From assembly GCA_016781085.1 (NCBI GenBank), contig JADDQZ010000036.1:26902-90901 (forward strand): a stretch of DNA of 64,000 nt, in the 5' to 3' direction. A model generated the notes under the pieces. That model saw only the letters and a program-made list of their open reading frames with translations, searched no databases and had not been told where the DNA came from. Position 1 is the stretch's first letter; each line of letters begins with the position of its first letter. The DNA comes from Actinomycetota bacterium (GTDB lineage: Bacteria > Actinomycetota > Thermoleophilia > Solirubrobacterales > Solirubrobacteraceae). Below, in pieces: positions 43,168-45,520 of the stretch. The translations under genes and the position numbers were made by a program.

Positions 43168-44234
43168 GGCCGCACCACCGAAAGCCCCAGCGACTCGACG
43201 ACGTCTTCGGCGTCGCTGGCAGCGTCATCGCCGGCCACCCACAGGCCGATCGCGCCCGTGCGGCCGTCGGGGGCGGGATGAAGCGCCATGTCGGTGATGT
43301 TGACGCCGGCGCGGCCGAGCGCCAAGGCGACGTCGGCGACGACGCCCGGCCGGTTCAGCACTGCGACGCGCAACTCGTGCAACGGTCCGCCCGGCACGTC
43401 GGACTCCAGCAGCCGGCGCCGATCCGCGCGCGCCGCCTCGTTCCACTGCGCCACGCGCTCGCCATCGCGCGCAGCCAGGGTGTCACGGACGTCGGTGAGG
43501 CGAGCGATGCAGTCGTCGATCGCTTCGACCAGCACATCGGCGTTCGCCAGATAGATGTCTCGCCACATCGCCGTGTTGGCGCCCGCCACGCGAGTGGCGT
43601 CGCGCAGGCTCGGACCGGCATGAGGGAGACGCTCGCCGTATTCCTCGACGACGGAAGCGGCTTGGGCGATCATCACGTTGGCGAGCACATGTGGCAGATG
43701 CGAGATACCAGCCATCACCCGGTCGTGCGTGTCCGCGTCGACCGCAAAAGGTCGCGCACCGAGATCTACCAGCAAGCGATGCAATCGCTCGTAGAGCATC
43801 CCGTCCGTGATGGAGGATGGCGTGAGAAACCACGGCGCTCCGTCGAACAGATCGCTCCGGGCGTGGGCGACTCCCGCGGTGTGCGCTCCGGCCAGCGGGT
43901 GCCCGCCGATAAAACGCGGATCGCAGACCGCGGCCATGACCGCGCGCTTCGTCGATCCGACGTCGCAGACGACGCAATCCTCGGGCGCAGCGGCGAGCGC
44001 CTCTGAAAGCGCCCCCGCAAGCGCGGCGACGGGCGCCGCCACGAACGCGGCGTCGGCGCCCTCGAGCGCCTCGCGGACAGAGCCGCAGGCATGGTCGAGG
44101 GCGCCGCGCTCAAAGCCCTGAGCGACGGCATCCGGATCGGGATCGAAGCCGCGTACTTCGGCTTGCACGCGCTCGCGGGCCGCCAAGCCGATCGAGCCGC
44201 CGATCAAGCCGACGCCGATGAGCGCGATTCTCAC
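43164..44234 (-). CDS. tyrA: Prephenate dehydrogenase with C-terminal ACT-like domain
   Basis: IGVGLIGGSIGLAARE; GGHPLAGAHTAGV; C-terminal ELRVAVLNRPGVVADVALALGRAGVNITDMAL. Confidence 0.92.
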   Translation of the reverse strand: MRIALIGVGLIGGSIGLAARERVQAEVRGFDPDPDAVAQGFERGALDHACGSVREALEGADAAFVAAPVAALAGALSEALAAAPEDCVVCDVGSTKRAVMAAVCDPRFIGGHPLAGAHTAGVAHARSDLFDGAPWFLTPSSITDGMLYERLHRLLVDLGARPFAVDADTHDRVMAGISHLPHVLANVMIAQAASVVEEYGERLPHAGPSLRDATRVAGANTAMWRDIYLANADVLVEAIDDCIARLTDVRDTLAARDGERVAQWNEAARADRRRLLESDVPGGPLHELRVAVLNRPGVVADVALALGRAGVNITDMALHPAPDGRTGAIGLWVAGDDAASDAEDVVESLGLSVVRP

Positions 44235-45262
44235 GCGGGAATGCTCGAAAGCACCTTGCCCGCGACTGCGGCCGCACGCTCCACTTGCTCGAGGTAGTCC
44301 GGGAACGTGTCTGAGTACAGCGCCTGCGGGCCGTCGCAGACCGCTTCCTCGGGATGCGGGTGGATCTCCACCATGATCCCGTCGGCGCCCACAGCCGCAG
44401 CCGCCAAGGACAGCGGAGTCACGAGGTCACGCCGCCCTGCGGCGTGACTGGGATCGATGATCACCGGCAGGTGCGACATCTCCTGGAGGACCGGCACGGC
44501 GGTCAAGTCCAGCGTGAAGCGGTAGGCCTTCTCGAACGTGCGAATGCCCCGCTCGCACAGCAGCACGTGCGGGTTGCCTTCTTTGAGCACGTATTCCGAC
44601 GCCATCAGCAGCTCTTCCAGCGTCGAAGAAAGCCCGCGCTTGATCATCACAGGGCAGCCCGCGCGGCCGACTTCCGACAGCAGCGAGTAGTTCTGCATGT
44701 TGCGCGCGCCGATCTGGATGATGTCGGCGACTTCGAGCACGGGCTCGAGGTCACGCGCGTCCATGCACTCGGTGACGATCGGAAGGCCGGTCTCTTCCTT
44801 GGCTTCCTTGAGCAGCTCTAGACCCTCCTCGCCGAGCCCTTGGAAGGCGTACGGCGAGGTACGGGGCTTGTACGCGCCGCCGCGGAACATCGTCGCTCCG
44901 GCGTCCCTGACGATGCGGGCGGTGTCGAGTGTCTGCTCACGAGTCTCGACCGTGCAGACGCCGGCGATCATCGCGAAGTTCTCGCCGCCTACGCGACGGC
45001 CGCCGATCTCGAAGACCGACCGCTCGTTGCTACGGAACTGCGACGAAGCGAGCTTGTACGGCTTGAGAATCGGTACGACCTGCTCGACGCCCGGAGAGCC
45101 TTCCAAGCCGAGGCGGGCCACATGCTCGCGGTCGCCGACGGCGCCGATCACGGTGACTTCCTCGCCCCTCGAGGGGTGGGCGTGCGCTCCGCACGACTCG
45201 ATTCGGTCTATGACGGCCTGGATCTCGTCCTCGGTGGCCGTCGCCTTCATGACGATCATCAT
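44231..45262 (-). CDS. aroF: 3-deoxy-7-phosphoheptulonate synthase (DAHP synthase, AroFGH/KdsA-like type)
   Basis: [52 protein letters not shown]. Confidence 0.95.
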
Positions 45263-45314
45263 CTTCGGTCTCCTACTTCAAAGGTCTTCAGCAAGCGTTC
45301 GGGCGCGGGGATGC

Positions 45315-45372
45315 GGCGCTCGGCACGGGGCCGTTGTGCTCCGGCGCTTCAGCGAAGCGCCAGCCGAGCGCC
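45315..45372 (-). promoter_or_regulatory. aroF leader stem-loops (candidate attenuator)
   Basis: 10-bp perfect stem GGCGCTCGGC (45372-45363) / GCCGAGCGCC (45324-45315) enclosing 8-bp hairpin GGCGCTTC-GCT-GAAGCGCC (45361-45343). Confidence 0.65.
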
Positions 45373-45479
45373 TAGCTAAATCGCCAGGCGCGGTAGGAGA
45401 ACGCGTAACGGCGGCCAGCGACACGGGCACCGGCGAAGACGGTGTCAGCGGTGCGTTGACGAGGACGGCAAAAAGCCAT
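45372..45479 (-). CDS. Aromatic-rich leader peptide upstream of aroF (MAFCRPRQRTADTVFAGARVAGRRYAFSYRAWRFS)
   Basis: 36 codons from ATG to TAG on minus strand between hisC and aroF; Y, F, Y, W, F codons within the last 11 sense codons. Confidence 0.65.
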   Translation of the reverse strand: MAFCRPRQRTADTVFAGARVAGRRYAFSYRAWRFS

Positions 45480-45520
45480 GACGCTGGCGGTTATTTGTAG
45501 CACCCGTCGCGGCGCCCGAC

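What the first reader, a model, noticed from the sequence alone, without database searches (positions are those of the whole stretch)
45263..45510. Unannotated aromatic-amino-acid leader peptide and competing stems upstream of aroF: candidate ribosome-mediated attenuator
Seen directly: in the hisC-aroF gap on the minus strand, ATG(45479)...TAG(45372) encodes MAFCRPRQRTADTVFAGARVAGRRYAFSYRAWRFS. Five aromatic codons, covering Tyr, Phe and Trp, fall in codons 25-34. RNA pairing options are mutually exclusive: GCGCCT (45391-45386, overlapping the Arg-Ala-Trp codons) with AGGCGC (45373-45368) at the stop; or GGCGCTCGGC (45372-45363) with GCCGAGCGCC (45324-45315), a perfect 10-bp stem enclosing the 8-bp hairpin GGCGCTTC-GCT-GAAGCGCC. 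The downstream genes are DAHP synthase, tyrA and aroA, which fits sensing of all three aromatic end products. Established: leader-peptide attenuation controls aromatic operons in several bacteria, and I recall an aroF leader in Corynebacterium. Inference: stalling at Tyr/Trp would cover the first arm and switch pairing. No U-tract follows, so output may be Rho-dependent or translational (the aroF SD AGGAG is about 50 nt downstream). A TGC-TACAAA extended -10-like element sits just before the ATG, so the transcript could be near-leaderless.
Basis: partly seen in the sequence, partly recalled or inferred. Interest (0 to 1): 0.85.

Follow-up and report, generated by a model that had tools for sequence, protein, structure and literature searches.

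The report
Aromatic leader-peptide switch before DAHP synthase
Soil bacteria of the order Solirubrobacterales carry a tiny, unannotated gene rich in tyrosine, tryptophan and phenylalanine codons in front of the enzyme that starts aromatic amino acid synthesis; its RNA can cover or uncover that enzyme's ribosome-binding site, and this little switch stayed in place while the enzyme gene behind it was swapped for another type several times.

Summary
A 35-codon ORF ending ...YAFSYRAWRFS* lies between hisC and aroF. Equivalent leaders precede DAHP synthase in 136 of 139 distinct instances of its DNA core, CGATTTnnCTAGGCG. The core occurs about once per genome across three families of Solirubrobacterales and at chance level elsewhere in Actinomycetota. 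Aromatic residues fill 33% of the last 12 codons before the core, against 4% and 1% out of frame. The enzyme behind the leader changed between type I-beta and type I-alpha DAHP synthase at least five times on a hisC tree, hisC and tyrA being kept. A third pairing was missed: aromatic codons pair with the DAHP synthase RBS (in the window TCTCCTAC:GTAGGAGA). This suggests translational attenuation: a ribosome stalled for lack of Tyr, Phe or Trp uncovers the Shine-Dalgarno site. There is no U-tract. An extended -10 just before the leader start implies a near-leaderless mRNA. The layout resembles the leuA LEU element and C. glutamicum AroR. This family and its invariant CGATTT core appear undescribed. 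Nothing was tested experimentally.

The parts
45494..45502 (-). extended -10 element TGC-TACAAA of the predicted leader promoter; predicted start of transcription near 45487, about 8 nt before the leader ATG
   Evidence: sequence; TGnTAnAA in 75 of 124 relatives upstream of the leader, under 1 expected; -10 to start distance mostly 7-13 nt
45372..45479 (-). leader ORF, 35 codons plus TAG, MAFCRPRQRTADTVFAGARVAGRRYAFSYRAWRFS
45393..45400 (-). arm A, UCUCCUAC within the Phe-Ser-Tyr codons (TTC TCC TAC, 45401-45393), complementary to the aroF RBS
   Evidence: 8 contiguous pairs; pair probability 0.98 in free RNA; enrichment across relatives
45269..45276 (-). arm A', GUAGGAGA, contains the aroF Shine-Dalgarno AGGAG (45274-45270)
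45369..45383 (-). invariant core CGATTTAGCTAGGCG (codons CGA TTT AGC, stop TAG, first bases of P2)
45383..45391 (-).
45368..45376 (-). 3' arm of hairpin H1 (GCUAGGCGC), overlaps the 5' arm of P2
45363..45372 (-). 5' arm of stem P2, GGCGCUCGGC
   Evidence: covarying in relatives
45315..45324 (-). 3' arm of stem P2, GCCGAGCGCC
45343..45361 (-). hairpin inside P2, GGCGCUUC-GCU-GAAGCGCC; the interior of P2 is not conserved between genera
44231..45262 (-). aroF, type I-beta DAHP synthase (TIGR01361), the regulated gene

Best explanation
This is a cis-acting leader-peptide attenuator of DAHP synthase, most likely acting on translation. A near-leaderless mRNA starts just before the leader ATG and ribosomes translate the leader. 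With enough charged aromatic tRNA, ribosomes clear the Tyr/Phe/Trp tract and reach TAG; the freed tract (arm A) pairs with the Shine-Dalgarno region of the DAHP synthase gene (arm A') and the gene is not translated. When aromatic tRNAs are uncharged, a ribosome stalls on the tract and covers arm A; P2 forms and the RBS is open. Shown by sequence: conservation of the leader, in-frame aromatic coding, P2 covariation, the -10 element, enrichment of A:A' pairing. Inferred: translation of the leader, stalling, the switch and its direction, and any Rho-dependent loss of transcription when aroF is not translated.
For: Leader before DAHP synthase in 136 of 139 core instances, kept through at least 5 enzyme exchanges. 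Aromatic coding only in frame. Covarying P2. A:A' pairing stronger than all 2000 permutations across genomes and than codon shuffles within the leader (p = 4.5e-6). Mean energy to open the SD: 4.5 kcal/mol with the native tract, 3.35 with shuffled codons (p = 6e-6), 2.7 with the tract covered. In the window the SD is paired in free RNA and with a ribosome at the stop codon, and 25-46% open with a ribosome on the aromatic codons. P2 is followed by a U-tract in only 1 of 122 loci.
Against: 21 of 117 loci show the opposite accessibility change (stalled less open by more than 0.5 kcal/mol). Own A:A' pairing beats nearest-relative swaps only modestly (p = 0.014). The start codon of aroF stays mostly paired in all window states. 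Mutation of regulatory codons in the similar LEU element was reported not to affect regulation (PMC1262725). The invariant CGATTT is not explained. No expression data.
Confidence: 0.58

Rival explanations
1. Transcriptional attenuation: H1 and P2 are mutually exclusive and set Rho-dependent or non-canonical termination before aroF.
For: H1 and P2 share GGCG and are exclusive; H1 is enriched over codon shuffles; RNA between P2 and the SD is richer in C (37%) than G (28%); C. glutamicum aroF is regulated at the transcript level through AroR (PMC11802643).
Against: No U-tract; H1 is under 6 bp in over a third of loci; it does not account for the A:A' pairing with the RBS.
Confidence: 0.24
2. The CGATTTnnCTAG core with P2 is a binding site for an unknown protein or ligand, and the leader peptide is secondary.
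For: Nucleotides invariant at synonymous positions (108 of 108) and kept where the stop codon is lost (L288); authors of the LEU element favoured a protein (PMC1262725).
Against: The aromatic codon tract is under clear in-frame selection with varying residue order, which a binding site would not need; no second conserved unpaired element inside P2.
Confidence: 0.1
3. The leader is an independent small protein gene with its own terminator, and aroF is driven by a separate promoter next to its RBS.
For: A TAnnnT element lies about 31-37 nt before the DAHP synthase start in 78 of 124 loci against 26% in shuffles.
Against: Only the aromatic tract and core of the peptide are conserved; it is found only before DAHP synthase; no -35 or extended -10 accompanies TAnnnT, and the window's copy lacks it.
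Confidence: 0.06

Closest known systems
LEU element of actinobacterial leuA (Seliverstov et al. 2005, PMC1262725)
   Same: Leader ORF with a run of codons for the pathway end product; [quoted passage not shown] no terminator; an internal structure is enclosed.
   Different: Leucine and leuA, with a conserved pseudoknot and no conserved unpaired nucleotides; here Tyr/Trp/Phe and DAHP synthase, a covarying P2 and an invariant CGATTTnnC.
AroR attenuator of Corynebacterium glutamicum aroF (Neshat et al. 2014, as cited in PMC11802643; also PMC4046766)
   Same: Aromatic leader peptide before a DAHP synthase gene, in the same phylum.
   Different: F-Y-F motif and described as transcriptional attenuation; the CGATTTnnCTAGGCG core was at chance level outside Solirubrobacterales, though the AroR sequence itself was not compared.
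Leaderless leader peptides of Streptomyces and mycobacteria (PMC8079986; polycysteine ORFs, Canestrari et al. 2020 as cited in PMC13236596)
   Same: Leaderless short ORFs that control amino acid genes; translation attenuation is reported for the cysteine case.
   Different: Other amino acids and other RNA structure; the cysteine paper itself was not held and not read.
Classical trp and phe attenuators (E. coli trpL, pheL)
   Same: Regulatory aromatic codons and mutually exclusive stems.
   Different: Those end in an intrinsic terminator with a U-tract, absent here.

Membership tests
Ribosome-mediated leader-peptide attenuator (general) | short ORF enriched in codons of the pathway end product | tested here: met
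   33% aromatic in frame against 4.0% and 1.2% out of frame
Ribosome-mediated leader-peptide attenuator (general) | RNA pairings that depend on ribosome position | tested here: met
   predicted only: SD opening and window folds with masked footprints
Ribosome-mediated leader-peptide attenuator (general) | response to limitation of the sensed amino acids | not testable with these tools
   needs reporter or Ribo-seq experiments
Transcriptional attenuator with intrinsic terminator | GC-rich hairpin followed by a U-tract | tested here: not met
   1 of 122 loci
LEU element (leuA) | codon run pairs with the Shine-Dalgarno of the regulated gene | tested here: met
   the window pair is 45400-45393: 45276-45269
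LEU element (leuA) | leucine leader upstream of leuA | tested here: not met
   aromatic leader upstream of DAHP synthase
LEU element (leuA) | conserved pseudoknot | not tested
   no pseudoknot model was built; no conserved complement of the core was found inside P2
AroR (C. glutamicum aroF) | sequence or structure homology to aroR | not tested
   aroR sequence not retrieved; the core is at chance level outside the order
Any Rfam 15 family | score over the gathering threshold | tested here: not met

The most novel reading that the evidence does not exclude
The invariant CGAUUUnnCUAG segment is a dedicated RNA or codon-level device, either a hairpin-loop receptor for an unknown factor or a programmed slow-termination site (CGA-UUU-nnC-UAG), that sets the timing of the switch. 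That would make this a new mechanistic class of leader-peptide regulator.
Probability: 0.22. Interest if true: 0.82.

Novelty: new variant of a known kind. Interest (0 to 1): 0.64.

Why it matters
It appears to be an undescribed regulatory RNA family in a common soil order, found from one unannotated 35-codon ORF. It offers a testable case of translational attenuation in which the sensing codons themselves are the anti-Shine-Dalgarno sequence, a design debated for leuA since 2005. The leader outlived the enzyme it controls: at least five changes between type I-beta and type I-alpha DAHP synthase kept it in place, which suggests that selection acts on control of the pathway step and not on one protein. 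The invariant CGATTT core is an open problem that a few synonymous mutants could settle.

Tried and rejected
Intrinsic terminator: rejected, no U-tract. Known riboswitch or other Rfam RNA: none. A conserved pairing partner of CGATTT inside P2: none found; after P2 a TAnnnT motif was found, which could be a -10 box or an RNA partner and is left open. The core as a general element used at other operons: rejected, 136 of 139 instances precede DAHP synthase and the other three look like chance. Presence in other orders and classes: not found at this sensitivity. No covariance model was built because P2 interiors differ greatly in length; permutation tests were used instead. Paper searches: no hit for leader peptide with Thermoleophilia, and none on this leader in the others. 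One cited paper was not held.

Full report
Observation. On the minus strand of the hisC-aroF gap (258 nt) the ORF 45479-45372 encodes MAFCRPRQRTADTVFAGARVAGRRYAFSYRAWRFS*. The gene order on this strand is chorismate mutase (aroH type), hisC, gap, aroF (type I-beta DAHP synthase), tyrA, aroA, then cmk and der by inspection of the translations.

Conservation. Relatives come from Solirubrobacterales and other Thermoleophilia, mostly MAGs. In nearly all relatives with a hisC-aroF gap of about 170 nt or more, a short ORF ends in ...WRF(S/R/I/T/L)* some 90-200 nt before aroF, with a variable N-terminus. The DNA around its stop codon, CGATTTnnCTAGGCG(n)(Y)CGG, was found in 67 of 101 relatives, once per genome but for one, with no hit for the reversed control. 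The shorter core CGATTTnnCTAGGCG was found in 127 of 399 genomes of the class, almost only in three families of one order, and at chance level in the rest of the phylum. Of 139 distinct instances, 136 precede a DAHP synthase: 96 of type I-beta and 40 of type I-alpha (TIGR00034).

Enzyme exchange. hisC lies upstream in 107 of 124 deduplicated loci, 33 of them alpha loci. tyrA (or aroA) was found downstream in all 17 alpha loci with enough sequence. On a tree of hisC the enzyme type changed 6 times, at least 5 forced by well-supported branches. The tree uses 67 loci and partial hisC, and a changed label could also reflect local exchange of hisC. The simplest reading is that the leader stayed and the enzyme gene was exchanged in place.

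Coding. In 124 deduplicated leaders the last 12 codons before CGA-TTT are 33% aromatic in frame, 4.0% and 1.2% in the other frames, and 4.2% in the window's genes, without an in-frame stop. Trp and Tyr occur together in 123 leaders, and the TTT in the core adds Phe. The order of residues varies, as expected for a codon sensor.

Constraint on nucleotides. A peptide-level search for RFx* after an aromatic-rich frame at aroF-anchored loci found 108 cases, all CGA-TTT-nnn-TAG. In the window's genes CGA is about 6% of Arg codons and TTT 25% of Phe codons. These loci include some that were fetched through the core, so the figure is partly circular; the loci, fetched through aroF alone, show the same. 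In L288 the TAG has become CAG while CGATTTCGC is kept. Two relatives have CTAG changed to TTAG (L003, L243). So the nucleotides, or these codons as such, are under selection.

Stems. P2 pairs 9 of 9 in 96 of 128 loci against 5% of shuffles. It covaries: 5' arms with CT go with CGAG and never with GGAC; arms with TC go with CGGA or CGGG and never with CGAG. P2 is followed by a U-tract in 1 of 122 loci.

The missed pairing. The aromatic codons are complementary to the RBS region of the DAHP synthase gene. Examples are CUACGCCUGG:CCAGGCGUAG next to AAAGGA (L192), GUAUUCCUACG:CGUAGGAGUAU (L005, one mismatch) and UCUCCUAC:GUAGGAGA in the window. Its strength exceeds all 2000 permutations across genomes and codon shuffles within each leader (p = 4.5e-6). 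It exceeds swaps with nearest relatives only modestly (p = 0.014), and related sequences are not independent, so the p-values are optimistic. The N-terminal half of the leader shows no such pairing. The energy to open the SD is 4.5 kcal/mol with the native tract, 3.35 with shuffled codons and 2.7 with the tract covered. In the window the SD is fully paired when the RNA is free or a ribosome sits at the stop codon, and 25-46% open when a ribosome is on the aromatic codons.

Start of the leader. A TGnTACAA-like extended -10 precedes the leader start by mostly 7-13 nt (14 in the window), with weak -35 similarity. An SD-like tetramer lies there in 6 of 77 cases. The leader is probably read from a leaderless or near-leaderless mRNA, as reported for leader peptides of Streptomyces lividans (PMC8079986).

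Mechanism. The best-supported model is translational attenuation: clearing of the aromatic tract lets it sequester the aroF RBS, while stalling on it uncovers the RBS and leaves P2. Conservation and pairing potential are shown; translation, stalling, direction and output are inferred. Rho-dependent loss of the untranslated message may follow.

Comparison. The LEU element of leuA was described with this same base stem, codon run against Shine-Dalgarno (PMC1262725). C. glutamicum aroF has an aromatic leader, AroR (PMC11802643, PMC4046766). The present element works like the first and controls the same step as the second. It is not a LEU element by codon and target gene, and homology to aroR was not tested. 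In most loci read from other Thermoleophilia orders hisC abuts aroF without room for a leader, so this looks like an innovation within one order. No Rfam family and no paper found in the searched library describes it; most subscription papers are not in that library.

Open points. The role of CGATTTnnC; the TAnnnT near the RBS in 63% of relatives but not in the window; and the loci that show no accessibility effect.

Noticed in passing
L017, L025, L031 and 75 other loci, about 31-37 nt before the DAHP synthase start; absent in the window at 45314-45277: A TAnnnT element lies between P2 and the RBS in 78 of 124 loci (26% in shuffles). It may be an internal -10 box or an RNA partner of the core.
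   Followed up: partly
L246 and L247 (family f4), hisC-aroF gap: These relatives lack the leader core and have another inverted repeat, CACCAAAG...CTTTGGTG, in the same gap; it may be a different control element.
   Followed up: no
L288 (genome G028): A leader in which the TAG stop has become CAG while CGATTTCGC and the P2 arm are kept, so the ORF runs on to a later TGA.
   Followed up: partly
L114-L120, L122, L129, L172 and other alpha loci: In-place exchange of type I-beta for type I-alpha DAHP synthase between hisC and tyrA, with at least 5 changes on the hisC tree.
   Followed up: yes
L141 (G356, family f10): One core match outside the three main families carries a sequence identical to one from them, possibly contamination of that MAG.
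   Followed up: no
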